Positions 34,234 through 49,035 of a stretch of DNA of 64,000 nt are shown piece after piece. The position numbers and the translations under genes were made by a program. The notes below the pieces were generated by a model that made no database searches, was not told the origin of the DNA, and saw only the letters and a program-made list of their open reading frames with translations. Source of the DNA: Paramyrothecium sp. XJ0827 (taxonomy: Eukaryota; Ascomycota; Sordariomycetes; Hypocreales; Stachybotryaceae); the NCBI GenBank assembly GCA_020881915.1, contig JAJFPB010000008.1, forward strand, positions 1,488,001 through 1,552,000, read 5' to 3'. The first letter of the stretch is position 1. Each line of letters begins with the position of its first letter.

Positions 34234-35691
<1,458 letters not shown>

Positions 35692-36628: not shown

Positions 36629-39193
36629 ATGCCGTCGTCCATGGCTTCATCGCGGGAGGATAGTTGGATTGTGCGAAGACTGGGCTGCATACGCCAGTCA
36701 ACACGGCGGTCTTCACGAAAGCAACCGATCCTTCTCAGCCCCGGGGATTCTGGCTACGACTCAGTCGACGACAGCTCACCAGAACGCTGCCATAAGTCAA
36801 GATGTCCTCCACCTCTGGATGGACCGGGATCGCAGAGTGATGCCGAGTCGTTTCTGTCGACCGATTCAGAACCTACGTTCGACTCGCCTCCTCGAAGACA
36901 TTGCCTGCCCGAGGGTGGATACTGCACTCCAACCAAGTCAAAACAGCATAGGCACCATGTTTAGTGGATTAATGATGCCTCTAATTCGCCAACGCAACCA
37001 GCCATCCTGCACAGAAGTAATACCAACACTCCGGACAGGTTCATCCCTTTGCGCGATGACCTTGTGCCGATTGCACAGAGATACAACACTACTAAGCCAC
37101 TGGACTCACTTACGGCAACCGAGAAACTCTTAAGACAAAACACAGCTTCCGCAGACCCTTTCATAAGCCCCCGAAGACTACGAGCTCCGGTTACCACCGA
37201 CCAGATTCAAGTTTCAAGAACGCGAGCACAACCACCTGTTGCAGGTTAGATCCCGTCATTTCATTTGAAACGGCAACATAGCTGATTATATGCTAGCCTC
37301 AGTCGCCGGTGTGATTCAACACCGCCATGGTAATGAAAGACAAGCCAGTCAAGGCGCGGTTTGGACGGTTGGTGGCTTGGCTCCCCATACCACCTCTGCC
37401 GTCGATGATGGTCGTGGTCACTTGCTACAAAGTGGCACTAATGCTCGAGTATTTACCACATCTTTTTTCGAGGCCAAACCGAACAGACAGGAAGACCCAG
37501 TCAGATATCACGACCGAATAGCTCTGGCTCTGAAGATCGATCGTGTTCGCAAAATGCTCGACTTTGACCGAAACATACTCACACCCTTGCCGTCTCGGCT
37601 ATCACAAATGGACAGTTTCGCTGACCATCAGAGGGTTTCCTGGAACGGCCATTGTTGGGTCGGGCCTGAGGGTACACGTCGTGAGTTTTTGTCGCTCCAC
37701 TGTCAAGGCATATCTGCTTTCTAATTGAGACACAGGACAGCAGAAATCGATCTCAAGGCGTGTCTTAGCAGCAGCGCCCTTCAAGTGAGTACCGTGCACC
37801 ATCGCTAATATACTTCTAATGCGCTTCCAGGGTTTTAGATGCACCGAATCTAAGGGATGATTTCTATTGCTCGGTACTGGCGTATTCGACGACGTCTCAA
37901 ACGCTCGCAGTCGGCTTAGGGAACGTAATGTATACGTGGTCCGAAGGCATCGGGGTTCGCATGTTGCATGGGTTGCCCCTCGAAGGTGTTTGGGTGACTT
38001 CAGTGGCCTTTTCCTCGGCCAAAGGCGGAAAGAGTATTCTTGCAATTGGCCGATCGGACGGAACGTTGGTTCTCAAATCAGTCTGTGACGGACTGCCGCG
38101 TTTCGAAATTCAGCAACCATGCCCGGTATCTTGTCTTAGCTGGCGTCCAATATGTACACCGCGCCCATCGAAGAATGTTCTCAATCCAGGAGTTCCCGTG
38201 CAGACCGAGGATCTTGTAGTCGGCGACGAAACCGGCACGATCTATTACTATGTGGTGGAGTGGCCCTTGCATTAGGAAATTTCTAGGGACACATGGCCAG
38301 GCTCGATTACTCTCGTTGGGAAGCTGTCCCTTCATGCCCAACAGATCTGTGGGCTTGCCTGGTCGCACGATGGTAAACTTCTCGCAACTGGAGGCAATGA
38401 CAATCTTTGCTGCCTGGTTGAAGTGGACGAGATTGTAGGCCCCTCCAGATATCCATCTCAGACCCCTCGAGAAGCAGATCGTCGAGGCCACCCAAGCAGG
38501 TTACGTTTTGGAGCTTCTCCATCGAACAGAGAGCCGCAAGTAGACGTCCAAGAAAGCCAGGATGGAGCTGAACAAATCGACCAACAGACCTGGGACCCTC
38601 GTCCGGCTCGACAGTGGACGGACGGCATACGAAGGCTTGGTCGCGGATGCGAAAGATACCGCTGGCTACATGGCGCAGCCGTCAAGGCCATTGCTTTCTG
38701 CCCCTGGCGCGATGGCCTTCTCGCAACGGGCGGCGGTTGCAATGATAAGTGCATTCGCTTTTTCCATACTTCATCGGGGTCAGCGTTGGCAACCATTGCC
38801 GTGTCGGCCCAAGTCACCTCCCTCATATGGTCACTCACCCGACGAGAGATTGTAGCTACGTTTGGGTATGCTCAACCGGAGCACCCCTACCGAATAGCTG
38901 TTTTCAGCTGGCCAGATTGTAGACAGGTTGCTGCGATACCGTGGGATGGTGAGCTGCGTGCCCTGTATGCTATTTCGTACCCAGGAGGCTCAGTCGACGG
39001 AAGGATACAAGGAGGAAGACGCGCAGCCCAGGAAGGATGCATTGTGGTCGCATCAAGCGATAAGAGCGTCAAATTCCACGAAGTGTGGGCAGACGATAGA
39101 AAGACCGCGGTCAGTGGAGCTGGTGTGCTCGGTGGCAGCGATATCCTCGAGGACCTGGAGGGCATTGACAAGGAGGGCGATATCATCCGTTAG
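36629..39193 (+). CDS. ama1: AMA1-type meiotic APC/C activator with an in-frame TAG
   Basis: Five exons are read as 36629-36936, 37015-37244, 37303-37680, 37736-37784 and 37831-39193. Without the internal TAG at 38273-38275 (codon 470) they encode 775 residues; with it, only 469. The protein belongs to the Cdc20/Fizzy WD40 activators of the anaphase-promoting complex, subfamily Ama1, which acts in meiosis and spore formation. Seen in order: a Ser-rich N-terminus, the C-box DRFIPLR at 110-116, the AVWTVGG and DGRGHLLQSGTNARVFTTSF block typical of Ama1, then WD repeats (QTLAVGLGNVMYTW, ICGLAWSHDGKLLATGGNDN, VKAIAFCPWRDGLLATGGG, CIVVASSDKSVKFHEVW) and a final Ile-Arg tail (GDIIR) for APC3 docking. 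The TAG sits where Trp is expected and the same frame continues for 305 codons. The donor of intron 1 (GTCAAA) is weak. See findings for the editing hypothesis. Confidence 0.82.
38273..38275 (+). other. In-frame TAG, candidate A-to-I stop-loss editing site
   Basis: The context is TGGCCCTTGCAT-TAG-GAAATTTCT. U precedes the candidate A and G follows it, the favoured neighbours for fungal UAG-to-UGG editing. Family proteins have a WP-x-x-W-E-[IV] pattern here, so TGG would restore the expected Trp. CCCT (38264-38267) can pair with AGGG (38285-38288), placing the A in a loop. Confidence 0.55.
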
Positions 39194-39518: not shown

Positions 39519-40431
39519 TCATTTCAAGATCGCTATCAAGAGGACCAAAATGATGATGAGGATCACAATTGCCGTCATCTGCTTGTTCTCACCGGCACCC
39601 CTGGCAACCCTGCCGAGGACCCTGCTCGCGCGGTCGAGACGGCCCTGCTGACGGTCAGTGGCAGCCTCGACGTCGTCGAGCATGGCGACATGGCTGTCGA
39701 GTTCATCGCCGATCTGCATGCTTAGCTCGCGTTGACGACCAATGGACTCGCCCAGGCGGTCGAGCTGCTCGTCCTGCTGCTCCAGGATGCGGGAGTGGTA
39801 CTGGTGCAGCTGCTGGTTGTCGAGGTTGGCGGCCTCGTCGCGGTAGCCGGCGGTGTCGTTGGCGGAGGGATCATCGCGGTAGGGGCCGAAGAGCTCGTTG
39901 TGCGCGGCGTCGTCGCCCACGGCCGGGGACGAGGGCGTGTCGCTGAAACGCACCGTCTTGGACTTGCGAGCAGCAGCAGCGGCGGAGGATCGGTCGGTGG
40001 AGGCAGCGTGGGCAAAGTCCTCGGAGAGCTCCTCGGAGTTGGGGTGGTTGAGCGTGGCGGTGGTGGACGGGTTGGAGAAGCCGTGGAACTGGGCCGTCAG
40101 GTCGTCAAACTGCTTCTGGAGTGACGGGAGGGCGTCGGAGATGGCGGAAGCGCCGCTGCGACGAGTAACCACCCGGGTGTTAGTTCAATGGCATTTTCGG
40201 GTTGGACAAGCGATGCTGGAGCAAATGAACGAACCTCTCGTCGCCAGCCTGCTCGAGCCTGTCCCGCTGCTGCTTGAGCGCCGCGAGGCCGTCGCGGAAC
40301 TGGTCCAGGGAGCGGGAGACGTGGCCGTCCTGGGTGTCGTTGTCGAGGTCGAGCGTCTGGGCGCGCTGCCTCTCGAGCAGCGACAGCTTGACGTGGTCGG
40401 CGAGGAGGAAGAGCTGGTTGGGATTGGACAT
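39519..40431 (-). CDS. Qc-SNARE, syntaxin-8/Syn8-like
   Basis: Two exons (40431-40235, 40155-39519) give 277 residues. The N-terminal part (MSNPNQLFLLADHVKLSLLERQRA) forms an Habc-like helical region. A disordered Ser/Asp-rich linker follows, then the SNARE motif with EQQDEQLDRLGESIGRQRELSMQIGDEL, where the Gln in SMQIGDEL fits the ionic zero layer of a Qc SNARE. A single C-terminal membrane anchor (TAIVILIIILVLLIAILK) ends the protein. It should sit on endosomal or trans-Golgi membranes and take part in vesicle fusion. The AG|C codon join across the intron is in frame. Assignment to Syn8 rather than Tlg1 rests on overall resemblance, so no symbol is given. Confidence 0.85.
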
Positions 40432-41693
40432 GGCGGGCGATCCTGTGCGTGCGAACAAGAGGTTTTCTCTAACGGGCGTTGTATCGATTTCGTCTTTCCT
40501 GAGCTCTAGGTGGCCGTGGTCTACACTACTGGGGGTCGCTGTTACGTTCGCAGGGATATGCCGGGGGGGGGGGGGGAGAGGGCTGGTGTGAACTGCGTTC
40601 GACGCCGGCGGAAACGGAGGGGGATATTCTCCGTTTGCAGTGGAGTGGTTTCCCGCACCGGATGGATCGAAATCTACGAAAGAAAGGAAGAATCACAGGC
40701 CGTTGGACAGGTCGATGGGGTGATGATGTATGAGATGGCGCGTACAGCTGATGATGTATCGTACTCGACGCTTGTCTTGTCGCAAGTAATCTGTTGCATG
40801 GGCGGCTGCTGGAGCTAATGTATACAGAACTGCCTAACCGGGATGATTCTACAACGACAGAGGACTAGATAGAATTTAACGTGGCGTCATAATAGATAGC
40901 ACTAACAGGAGATCCGTACCGCAAAAGTCCATTCCATAAGCTCTCGGGTACTGCCAAAGGCAGCGACTTCCTGGCACACCTCTATGCGTAAGCGTACAAT
41001 GGCACGCTTCGACATGCAGGAAGCGGGTTTGGAGCCTCGATTTAGACCGATCCTGTGCAGCGGCGTGGGAGAAGGGGATAAAGCATGGCGAGCCCATCGA
41101 ATCACTTGTCCTTACCGTGGCTCCGCTGAAAGTGAGTGTACTTTAACCCCCCTTCCCTATCCGCCTACATAAATGCCCACGGGGGCGATTGAGACCTCAG
41201 ACAGAGCAACTGGATAGGAAACCCCCGTCTGCGCTCGGAATTCTCCGTCCGACGGCACCAACTGCCAAGTGAGACCACCCCAGCTCGGGGCATAGGAGCG
41301 AACGTGCGTACTTAGGCCCCTACTGGTTCCCCGGCGACTGGCCACCTGCATCCATCGCAACCACCTACTGTACAGCTCCCCTTGCGCAGTTGGGGAGCAC
41401 CACCTCCGTGAGAGTCACATTAGGACCTCGCACCCATTTTGCATACGAGGTTCACGCTGTATCAAGCGCAATTTCAAGGAGCCATGCTTGGAAATGGATG
41501 TCAAATTTGGTTAATAACTGCAATAGTGTAATTGATGATACATGGCGACGTAAAGATCCGGAAATGTCGCGTTACCCAGCCCCGTAAACTCCCATGAAAC
41601 CCATCAGCATCCCTCCAGGACGCGTCGCGCCGCAAGGAAACTCCCATTTAAATCAAATAAATCGATAAGAAATTTACTCCAAAAGACTTTTCT
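40432..41693. other. Intergenic with G homopolymer
   Basis: Promoter of the SNARE gene and 3' region of the next minus-strand gene. A run of 14 G lies at 40563-40576. No gene is supported. Confidence 0.5.
40563..40576. repeat. Homopolymer of 14 G
   Basis: Uninterrupted G run in the SNARE gene's upstream region, about 130 bases before its ATG on the opposite strand (14 C in the transcript sense). Its length may be a sequencing estimate. Confidence 0.85.
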
Positions 41694-46620: not shown

Positions 46621-49035
46621 ATGAATGGGGACCTGAGTCTTTCTCAAGCGCTGGGCGGACTGCGGATCGCCAACCCGGACGATGCCACGGATCCCGTACC
46701 CCCCACGATCGCTCAACCAACCTCGCCTGCTGCTACTGCTGCCGCGGCTCACGACGCCAATCTGCATAACCCGACCGCTGCGAACGCGAATTCTTCCGGC
46801 TATAGCGAGCCTCTAATGAATGAATATCAGCATGTTGCCGTCCCCTTAGAGTCACAAACTTCCTCCCGCTCCGACATGGCCCGGTCCTCCATTTACGGCG
46901 CCCCTGACTATGTGGATTCTTCAACTGCATCCATGGCCGCCTCTGCTTCCACATCGTACCTGTCGCGCGAGTCGAGCCAGCGGGACACACATCGGTTTTC
47001 TCAGTCGTCTCGGAATGCACCCTTCCCCCCTGGCGCCGGCTCCCTGCCTCCTCGGAGGAGTTCTAGAGGTATGGCAGGTGGGTATGGATCCATGCCCGCT
47101 GGCTCCCAGGCTGTACCCTTTGCTGGAGATGCTCCAGTGCCGACAACGAGCGAGGAGTGGAAGGACCGTGGCGCTGCCGTCGGTGTGCGCCGGGAGGTGG
47201 ACGCCAATGGGCGAACAGTGGTTCGCCAGGTGAAAAAGGGCGTCCGCGACTTCTCATTTGGCCGCGTTCTCGGTGAAGGATCATACAGTACCGTCTACCT
47301 GGCTACTGATCGCCAAACACTCAAGGAATACGCCATCAAGGTTCTCGAGAAACGACACATAATCAAGGAGAAGAAGATCAAATATGTCAACATCGAGAAG
47401 AACACGCTCAACCGCTTGACGGAGCATCCCGGCATTGTTCGCCTGTACTATACCTTTCAGGACGACTCTTCTCTATACTATGTCTTGGACCTGTGTAACG
47501 GCGGCGAGTTGCTGGGCGTGTTGAAGAAAACCGGCACTTTCGATGTCGAGTGTACACGGTTCTATGGCGCGCAGATCCTCGATGCCATTGACTATATGCA
47601 CTCGCGTGGTGTGATACACCGAGATTTGAAACCGGAGAATGTACTACTCGACGACTCCATGCATATAAAAATCACAGATTTCGGCACGGCCAAATTGCTT
47701 CGAGACCCCCGTCAACCGCAACCCGCCGATGCCACCAGTCCTGATCCTGGGAGGCCAGATGAAGATGATGATAACCGAGCCGCCTCCTTCGTGGGAACTG
47801 CCGAGTATGTTAGCCCTGAGCTGCTCACTAGCAAGAGTGCCTGTAAGGCTAGTGACCTGTGGGCGTTCGGGTGCATCATCTATCAGCTACTTGCTGGGAG
47901 ACCACCGTTCAAGGGTGGCAGCGAGTATTTGACGTTTCAGAAGATTGTCAACCTCGAATATGAATTCCCTCCAGGCTTCCCACCCGCCGCTAGGGACTTG
48001 GTTGAGCGTTGCTTGGTTCTCGACCCGGCTCGAAGAATCACAATGGAACACATCAAGAACCACGAGTTCTTTGACGGCCAGCAATTCGGCAAGGTACTTT
48101 GGCGAACAAAGGCACCGAGGCTGAGGCCCTACGTTCCATCGCCGCAGGAACCCAGCATTATACAGCTGAATGGGTTCGGCGGAGCCTCTGCACCCAACCC
48201 CCCGCCTGAGACACGGGCCGCCATGCAATCCCAGGGCAACCCGACAAACGGGGCGAATCGCCCAGCTCGGATCATCACAGAGCTTCCGCCTCCTACGCAG
48301 CTGGATATTGAATGGTCGCCTGTACTCACTAAGAATAACGAACGTATCCTCAAGCTCGGAGACTTGATGGTCATTTCCACACCTATAGCCCATAGTCCAC
48401 ACGGGAAACATTCCGATGACGGCCACAAGAAGTTGTCGCGATTCTTTGGAGGAAGCACCACCAAGAAACGTCAACGGCTCGTTATGGTAACCTCAAGCGG
48501 TCGAGTTATACTTGCTGCCGCCGGAGGAAAAGAGAAACAGGCCAAACAAGAATTATCCCTACTCGCCCCAGACTGCACCTGGAGAAGCCAGCAAGATGCC
48601 AAAGGACAGCTTGTCTGGTGCGTTGATATTGTAAGTCAAACCCAGCTTGAACATTGCCTTCTCGTACGAGTTATCTAATGACTGTTTCAGGGGGGCAATC
48701 ACTACACGTTCGAAGACGTTAAGGGCACAGCGAGCACCGACCCCCCCTCCGCCGTCGAATGGATCGAGTGTCTTGAAAGAGCGAAAGAAATGGCCCTGTC
48801 TCAGAACTCTGGAAATTATAGCGGCGACAACAGCTTCTCTGAGATGCCCTCCACAATGTCAAGCCCAGCGAGCACAATTGCAGGCCGACCGAGCTACGCC
48901 GAGGGCTTTGGCGTAGGCGACTGGTCGGGTCGCAACCACTTGAGCAAAAGTCAGGCAAGCGCTGAGGATCCAGCTCCGAAGCGTAACCGCTTCAGCAAGA
49001 GACAATCGCGCAGCGGCTTAGGTTCCGCATTTTGA
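46621..49035 (+). CDS. PDK1-type AGC kinase (Pkh-like)
   Basis: Two exons (46621-48630, 48691-49035) give 784 residues. A disordered Ser/Ala-rich N-terminus of about 205 residues precedes the kinase domain (about 211-480): glycine loop GEGSYSTVY, Lys240 in YAIKVL, HRDLKPEN with Asp335, DFGTAKLL with Asp353, and the activation loop ASFVGTAEYVSPELL with Ser389 as the expected autophosphorylation site. The Ser-Phe-Val-Gly-Thr-Ala-Glu-Tyr-Val signature and a PH-like domain at about 574-710 (ERILKLGDLMVIS, RLVMVTSSGRVIL, ending near VEWIECLERAKEM) mark it as a 3-phosphoinositide-dependent kinase 1 homologue. Yeast Pkh1/2 respond to sphingoid bases and activate Ypk, Sch9 and Pkc1 at the plasma membrane and eisosomes. 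The 60-nt intron is in frame. Family identity is very secure. Confidence 0.94.

What the first reader, a model, noticed from the sequence alone, without database searches (positions are those of the whole stretch)
38273..38275. In-frame TAG inside the AMA1-type gene at an expected Trp: candidate developmental UAG-to-UGG recoding
Seen: the reading frame of the Cdc20/Ama1-like protein is continuous for 445 bases up to a TAG and for another 305 codons after it, with family-typical sequence on both sides (DETGTIYYYVVEW before, SRDTWPG and ICGLAWSHDGKLLATGGNDN after). Truncation at codon 470 would remove the rest of the WD40 propeller and the C-terminal Ile-Arg tail. One base, TAG against TGG, gives the Trp expected there. 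Known: Sordariomycetes (Fusarium, Neurospora, Sordaria) carry out A-to-I mRNA editing specifically in sexual fruiting bodies, favour U before the A, and convert UAG to UGG in some genes needed for sexual development; I recall an AMA1-family gene of Fusarium being discussed in this context but cannot verify that here. Inference: the stop acts as a developmental lock so that full-length activator is made only in fruiting bodies. Alternatives are a nonsense mutation, a sequencing error, or an in-frame 60- or 78-nt intron (donors at 38216 or 38198), which would delete a conserved strand.
Basis: partly seen in the sequence, partly recalled or inferred. Interest (0 to 1): 0.88.

Follow-up and report, generated by a model that had tools for sequence, protein, structure and literature searches.

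The report
RNA-edited stop codon in meiosis gene
A fungal meiosis gene carries a stop codon in place of a highly conserved tryptophan, very probably overridden by RNA editing during fruiting; such editing is known from Fusarium, but relatives seem to have such stops at several different tryptophans of this same gene.

Summary
In detail: window 38273-38275 is an in-frame TAG inside a single-copy AMA1 (meiosis-specific APC/C activator) gene. In my four-exon model it is codon 498 of 803 (not 470). In the 120 full-length relatives listed, that codon is Trp in 106, Tyr 1, Ser 1, gap 12. The best explanation is sexual-stage A-to-I editing of UAG to UGG, already published for Fusarium graminearum FgAMA1, so the kind is known. 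Comparative support: of 157 short relatives, 96 end inside residues 351-789, and 68 of these end one residue before a conserved Trp (2.4 expected): 40 at codon 498, 18 at 454, 7 at 721. Ten gene models have a hole ending exactly at 498, which points to TAG. The genome has an AME1-like gene with the editing-specific MV residues. No canonical in-frame intron spans either TAG. Not seen: any RNA or any relative's DNA. The role of codon 112 is unsure. The nearest named relative, Paramyrothecium foliicola, has Trp at 498, so this stop comes and goes.

The parts
36629..39193 (+). AMA1 gene, four exons (36629-37244, 37297-37680, 37736-37784, 37831-39193), 803 codons plus terminal TAG
   Evidence: Model by frame and splice signals; best named hit is annotated as meiosis-specific APC/C activator AMA1; no RNA seen
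38273..38275 (+). In-frame TAG at codon 498, position of a conserved Trp; candidate edited base 38274
36962..36964 (+). Second in-frame TAG at codon 112; candidate edited base 36963; residue not conserved in relatives
37034..37054 (+). C-box DRFIPLR (codons 136-142), downstream of the first TAG; next Met after codon 112 is codon 292
   Evidence: motif name recalled
37831..39190 (+). Exon 4, WD40 region of Cdc20/Fizzy type, interrupted by the TAG at 38273
   Evidence: Pfam PF24807 E 6.5e-58, 196.8 bits, just under its 200-bit cut-off; solved Cdh1/Cdc20 chains
39185..39190 (+). Terminal Ile-Arg (IR tail)
   Evidence: motif name recalled
39191..39193 (+). Terminal stop TAG; a TAA follows 11 codons later in frame

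Best explanation
This is a functional AMA1 gene of a Stachybotryaceae-like fungus whose mRNA carries premature UAG codons. During sexual development the Tad2-Tad3-Ame1 deaminase turns the A of UAG into inosine, read as G, so codon 498 is translated as the conserved Trp and full-length activator is made. In vegetative cells translation stops and no functional activator of this type appears. Shown here: the TAG, the Trp it replaces, intact sequence downstream, an AME1-like gene with the editing-type residues, and stops at exactly this codon in many relatives. Inferred: the editing itself, its restriction to fruiting bodies, and the same treatment of codon 112, which would also have to be overcome because no in-frame Met lies between it and the C-box.
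For: Trp in 106 of 120 listed relatives at codon 498. 40 of 157 short relatives end exactly at residue 497; 68 of 96 internal ends lie right before a conserved Trp, 2.4 expected. Ten gene models with a hole ending exactly at 498 imply a codon ending in AG. Identity to P. foliicola 136/148 before the stop, 56/62 just after, 170/183 near the end. No canonical in-frame intron across either TAG. Context tTAGgaa fits all six published positions; 3 of 210 codon pairs score as high as the two TAGs. DUF726 gene with MV 89 residues before Asp, as in Ame1 M500-V501/D589. Tad2-like deaminase motifs. Single copy. FgAMA1 precedent.
Against: No RNA was available. Relatives' DNA could not be read. The nearest named relative has Trp 498, so a young mutation is not excluded. 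No second edited gene was shown in this genome. Predicted folds are no more stable than shuffles; the A's sit in hairpin loops in 61-nt folds but not in 101-nt folds, and 36% of all A's in the CDS sit in such loops. Codon 112 replaces no conserved residue. Part of the good context at 498 is forced by the conserved Glu 499. Tad3 was not identified.
Confidence: 0.85

Rival explanations
1. The TAG is the 3' splice site of a short in-frame intron (60 or 78 nt), so the protein lacks 20 or 26 residues and no editing is needed.
For: A review says one Fusarium gene (FgBUD14) has both splicing and editing at such a stop.
Against: No in-frame canonical intron spans the TAG. The removed stretch is conserved in relatives with Trp there, whose codon has no AG to splice to. 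Published work reports that annotation programs insert such false introns at edited stops.
Confidence: 0.06
2. A recent nonsense mutation (or two) in a gene that is dying, for example in a lineage that has lost sex.
For: The nearest named relative has Trp 498; two stops in one gene; a young mutation would leave no decay.
Against: The same codon is a stop in 40 of 157 short relatives. Both stops are TAG and none is TAA or TGA; 21 of 317 single-base routes are TGG to TAG. No decay downstream. An AME1-like gene is kept.
Confidence: 0.05
3. Sequencing or assembly error at the site.
For: Reads were not available; one base decides.
Against: Two independent TAGs, the frame otherwise intact, contigs of megabase size, and the same stop position in many other assemblies.
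Confidence: 0.02
4. Programmed translational readthrough of UAG without any change in the RNA.
For: It would also give a full-length protein from the same DNA.
Against: Exact truncations fall at conserved Trp codons (68 of 96), as a UAG-to-UGG change predicts; readthrough has no reason to prefer Trp positions.
Confidence: 0.02

Closest known systems
FgAMA1 (FGRRES_10728) of Fusarium graminearum, premature-stop-correction (PSC) editing
   Same: Same gene, same type of in-frame UAG that editing turns to UGG in perithecia
   Different: Gene models suggest that the Fusarium stop is at Trp 404: 7 of 13 Fusarium rows have a hole covering it, 6 have Trp. Here the stop is at 498, plus one at 112. The primary paper (Hao 2019) was not held
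PUK1 of F. graminearum
   Same: Two stops in one gene, both edited in perithecia
   Different: PUK1's stops are tandem; here the two are 386 codons apart
CHE1 of F. graminearum
   Same: A conserved stop that makes gene prediction give truncated or falsely spliced models
   Different: CHE1 is edited in vegetative hyphae and its site is described in near Fusarium relatives; the AMA1 stops here recur in Hypocreales, Xylariomycetidae and Glomerellales

Membership tests
AMA1 (Cdc20/Cdh1-family meiotic APC/C activator) | Cdc20/Fizzy-type WD40 region | tested here: met
   PF24807 E 6.5e-58 but 196.8 bits against a 200-bit cut-off; PDB chains of Cdh1/Cdc20, best E 5.5e-36
AMA1 (Cdc20/Cdh1-family meiotic APC/C activator) | C-box and C-terminal Ile-Arg | tested here: met
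   DRFIPLR at codons 136-142 and IR at the end; motif definitions recalled
AMA1 (Cdc20/Cdh1-family meiotic APC/C activator) | Closest relatives are AMA1, distinct from Cdc20 and Cdh1 | tested here: met
   Best named hit annotated AMA1; the genome's other two matches are 43% or less
AMA1 (Cdc20/Cdh1-family meiotic APC/C activator) | Expression and role in meiosis or ascospore formation | not testable with these tools
   No RNA or mutant data
PSC-edited genes of Sordariomycetes | In-frame UAG where full-length protein needs Trp | tested here: met
   Codon 498: Trp in 106 of 120. For codon 112 the residue is not conserved, so not met there
PSC-edited genes of Sordariomycetes | Preferred flanking bases | tested here: met
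   Six of six at 498, five of six at 112; -1 U and +1 G come with any UAG
PSC-edited genes of Sordariomycetes | Edited A in a hairpin loop | tested here: inconclusive
   Yes in 61-nt folds, no in 101-nt folds; 36% of all A's do so too
PSC-edited genes of Sordariomycetes | Editing machinery (Ame1 with MV, Tad2, Tad3) in the genome | tested here: inconclusive
   Ame1-like gene with MV and Tad2-like motifs found; Tad3 not identified
PSC-edited genes of Sordariomycetes | A-to-G mismatch in perithecial but not hyphal RNA | not testable with these tools
   No RNA data

The most novel reading that the evidence does not exclude
AMA1 is a gene on which an editing lock evolves again and again. Sordariomycete lineages have placed UAG at different conserved Trp codons of the same protein (404, 454, 498, 721), with repeated gain or loss, so selection acts on having a lock and not on where it sits. 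The window lineage may carry two locks at once (112 and 498), while close relatives show Trp at 498 (P. foliicola) or a stop at 721 (P0222).
Probability: 0.65. Interest if true: 0.75.

Novelty: new member of a known kind. Interest (0 to 1): 0.56.

Why it matters
If restorative editing only mends chance nonsense mutations, stops should be scattered among genes and sites. One meiotic gene in which several lineages have stops at different conserved tryptophans suggests that the stop-plus-editing switch is itself favoured, and it offers natural replicates to test why. A practical side: AMA1 looks mis-annotated (truncated, or given false introns) in a number of public fungal genomes.

Tried and rejected
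PUK1-like control: 138 Pkinase matches were listed in the genome (123 of 263 candidates scored), 21 of them with at least one TAG by my count. I read the six with a TAG and little room for an intron; all six look like ordinary introns. The other 15 were not read. The Rid and SPO22 loci show no same-frame TAG split in their listed ORFs. Pal1 (2 matches) and RhoGAP (12 matches) domains carry no TAG. So no second edited gene was shown here.

Relatives' DNA: viral contigs gave 7 pattern stretches and genome contigs 85, none confirmed.

Holes near Trp 721 are not counted as evidence: two Lachnellula models, which I recall as Leotiomycetes, where editing is not known, have a 6-residue hole 716-721, too short for an intron, so an ordinary intron border may lie there. 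The seven exact ends at 720 are kept.

Class control (genera assigned from memory): 32 of the 120 listed relatives are Leotiomycetes; residue 498 is W in 31 and S in 1, with no gap. All 12 gaps at 498 are in models with Sordariomycete names. The short-relative lists are skewed to Sordariomycetes, so this is weak.

RIP as the source of TGG to TAG was set aside by reasoning only: the gene is single copy and has no other internal stops.

The tree has 142 columns for 244 rows and 121 of 236 inner branches are open. Rows left out: 34 of 278 (27 with another letter or no letter at 498, and 7 too short).

Full report
What is there. The window carries an AMA1 gene on the + strand. My four-exon model encodes 803 codons with a C-box (DRFIPLR), a WD40 region and a terminal Ile-Arg. 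The TAG of the finding, 38273-38275, is codon 498. A second in-frame TAG, 36962-36964, is codon 112. The gene is single copy: a search of the window's 51.8-Mb, 15-contig assembly gives this locus at 100% with one TAG inside, and otherwise pieces of two other proteins at 36-49% identity, which I take for Cdc20 and Cdh1.

Which organism. The best named relative is Paramyrothecium foliicola (84% identity over 75% of the query), of Stachybotryaceae, Hypocreales, Sordariomycetes. No tool names the window's own organism.

The codon. One search found 732 relatives and listed the best 120. Aligned, residue 498 is W in 106, Y in 1, S in 1, and absent in 12. Identity to P. foliicola is 136/148 in residues 350-497, 56/62 in 499-560, 36/57 in the loop 561-620 and 170/183 in 621-803, so the part after the stop has not decayed more than the part before. 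A very recent mutation would not show decay either.

Truncated relatives. I searched with the piece up to the stop (52 hits) and with residues 205-497 (263 hits, best 120 listed, 15 of them already seen). Length limits keep out most full-length proteins. Of these 157 short relatives, 40 end exactly at residue 497. Nine bear an organism name: Hypoxylon texense, Anthostomella pinea, Hypoxylon sp. CO27-5, Hypoxylon sp. FL1284, Xylariaceae sp. FL0016, Daldinia childiae, Hypomontagnella monticulosa, Parahypoxylon ruwenzoriense and Truncatella angustata; 31 have none. Another 18 end at 453 (stop at Trp 454; Colletotrichum fructicola and C. truncatum among them), 7 at 720 (Trp 721), 2 at 627 (Trp 628), 1 before Trp 683, and 2 at 403 (Trp 404 in the query; Stachybotrys elegans and Conoideocrella luteorostrata). 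Overall 96 of 157 end inside residues 351-789; 68 of the 96 end right before one of 11 conserved Trp columns out of 439, where 2.4 are expected if ends were uniform; the Trp 404 cases are counted among the other 28. The queries were cut at 497, which favours that end point; leaving codon 498 out, 28 of 56 remain against about 1.3 expected (my arithmetic). Merged at 80% identity there are 35 clusters at Trp and 19 elsewhere. Rows are still not independent in descent. An ORF that simply runs into an intron would not stop exactly at the Trp codon, because an intron begins with GT.

Gene models with holes. Twelve of the 120 full-length models lack residue 498. Nine of these and one have a hole that ends exactly at 498. 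A predicted intron must end in AG, so codon 498 of those species should end in AG; at a Trp position where a plain reading was avoided, that points to TAG. In Fusarium, 7 of 13 rows have a hole covering Trp 404 (four of them ending exactly there) and 6 have Trp. Published work says that annotation programs insert false introns at edited stops. Hence FgAMA1's edited stop is probably at Trp 404, another Trp than here; the primary paper was not held.

Recurrence. On a tree of 244 rows from 142 columns before the site, Trp-498 against stop-498 needs 17 changes, or 20 if the holes count as stops; for the stop-498 group against all other rows the figures are 20 changes, at least 7 forced by starred branches, shuffled mean 38.7. 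The window's nearest rows are P. foliicola (Trp 498) and P0222, a row without organism name with Trp 498 but a stop at Trp 721. Gain and loss cannot be told apart.

Mechanism. Preferences published for F. graminearum are U at -1, C/U at -2, A/G at +1, +3 and +4, and G at +2. Codon 498 (tTAGgaa) fits all, codon 112 (tTAGtgg) five of six. Among 21 Trp-or-TAG codons of this CDS only 498 has all four free positions preferred, and 3 of 210 codon pairs score as high as the two TAGs. Part of this is forced by the conserved Glu 499. Folding adds little: both A's are in hairpin loops in 61-nt folds, not in 101-nt folds, z-scores about 0, and 200 of 561 A's in the CDS are in such loops. The editing complex is Tad2-Tad3-Ame1, and Ame1's role depends on MV at 500-501. 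The genome has three DUF726 loci (six matches); the one on contig 8 has MV exactly 89 residues before the Asp of 'EQD', the spacing of M500 to D589. I did not make a tree of these genes. Tad2-like motifs are present; Tad3 was not identified.

Codon 112. It lies before the C-box (codon 136), and the next in-frame Met is codon 292, so an unedited transcript could make a 111-residue peptide only. No canonical in-frame intron spans it, and the exon aligns in frame with relatives on both sides at 28-43% identity. But the residue is not conserved: gap in 79, F in 21, others in 20 of 120. I hold it as a probable second lock, about 0.6.

What speaks against. Other genes edited in Fusarium do not show such stops here where I looked (limits in Tried and rejected). 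No RNA was available, and no relative's DNA.

Literature seen. PMC4817773: passages and section 12. PMC11156358: parts 1 and 2 of 3. PMC9600606, PMC9499528, PMC11050156, PMC12582100, PMC11087585, PMC11169179, PMC13278821: passages only. Hao 2019 (10.1111/mmi.14219): not held, known from citing passages. Eight searches of the open-access library listed no title or abstract start on AMA1 stops at different tryptophans across Sordariomycetes; subscription papers are not covered.

Verdict. The finding is real and its interpretation is well supported by comparison. Mechanism and gene are already known from Fusarium, so this is a new member of a known kind; the recurrence at several tryptophans is the part a specialist may not expect.

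Noticed in passing
   Followed up: partly
window 39191-39193: The terminal stop of the gene is TAG as well, with TAA 11 codons later in frame; a stop-loss edit there would add a 12-residue tail.
   Followed up: no
window 34660-35691, + strand: Open frame with a DGIDIDWEYP motif, which I recall as that of GH18 chitinases.
   Followed up: no
window 39519-40692, - strand: Frames that look like a SNARE-type protein with a C-terminal membrane anchor, judged by eye.
   Followed up: no
window 47257-48072, + strand: Protein kinase domain in a 693-codon open frame (G000:C14:1535257-1536072).
   Followed up: no
protein P0001 (Paramyrothecium foliicola): The public AMA1 model starts near the end of exon 1 and lacks the C-box; an unread stop or a plain annotation error could be the cause.
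   Followed up: no
protein P0173 (Hypoxylon texense): Named 'ubiquitin-like protein atg8' in a public source, but it matches AMA1 and ends at the Trp 498 position; the name looks wrong for this part.
   Followed up: no
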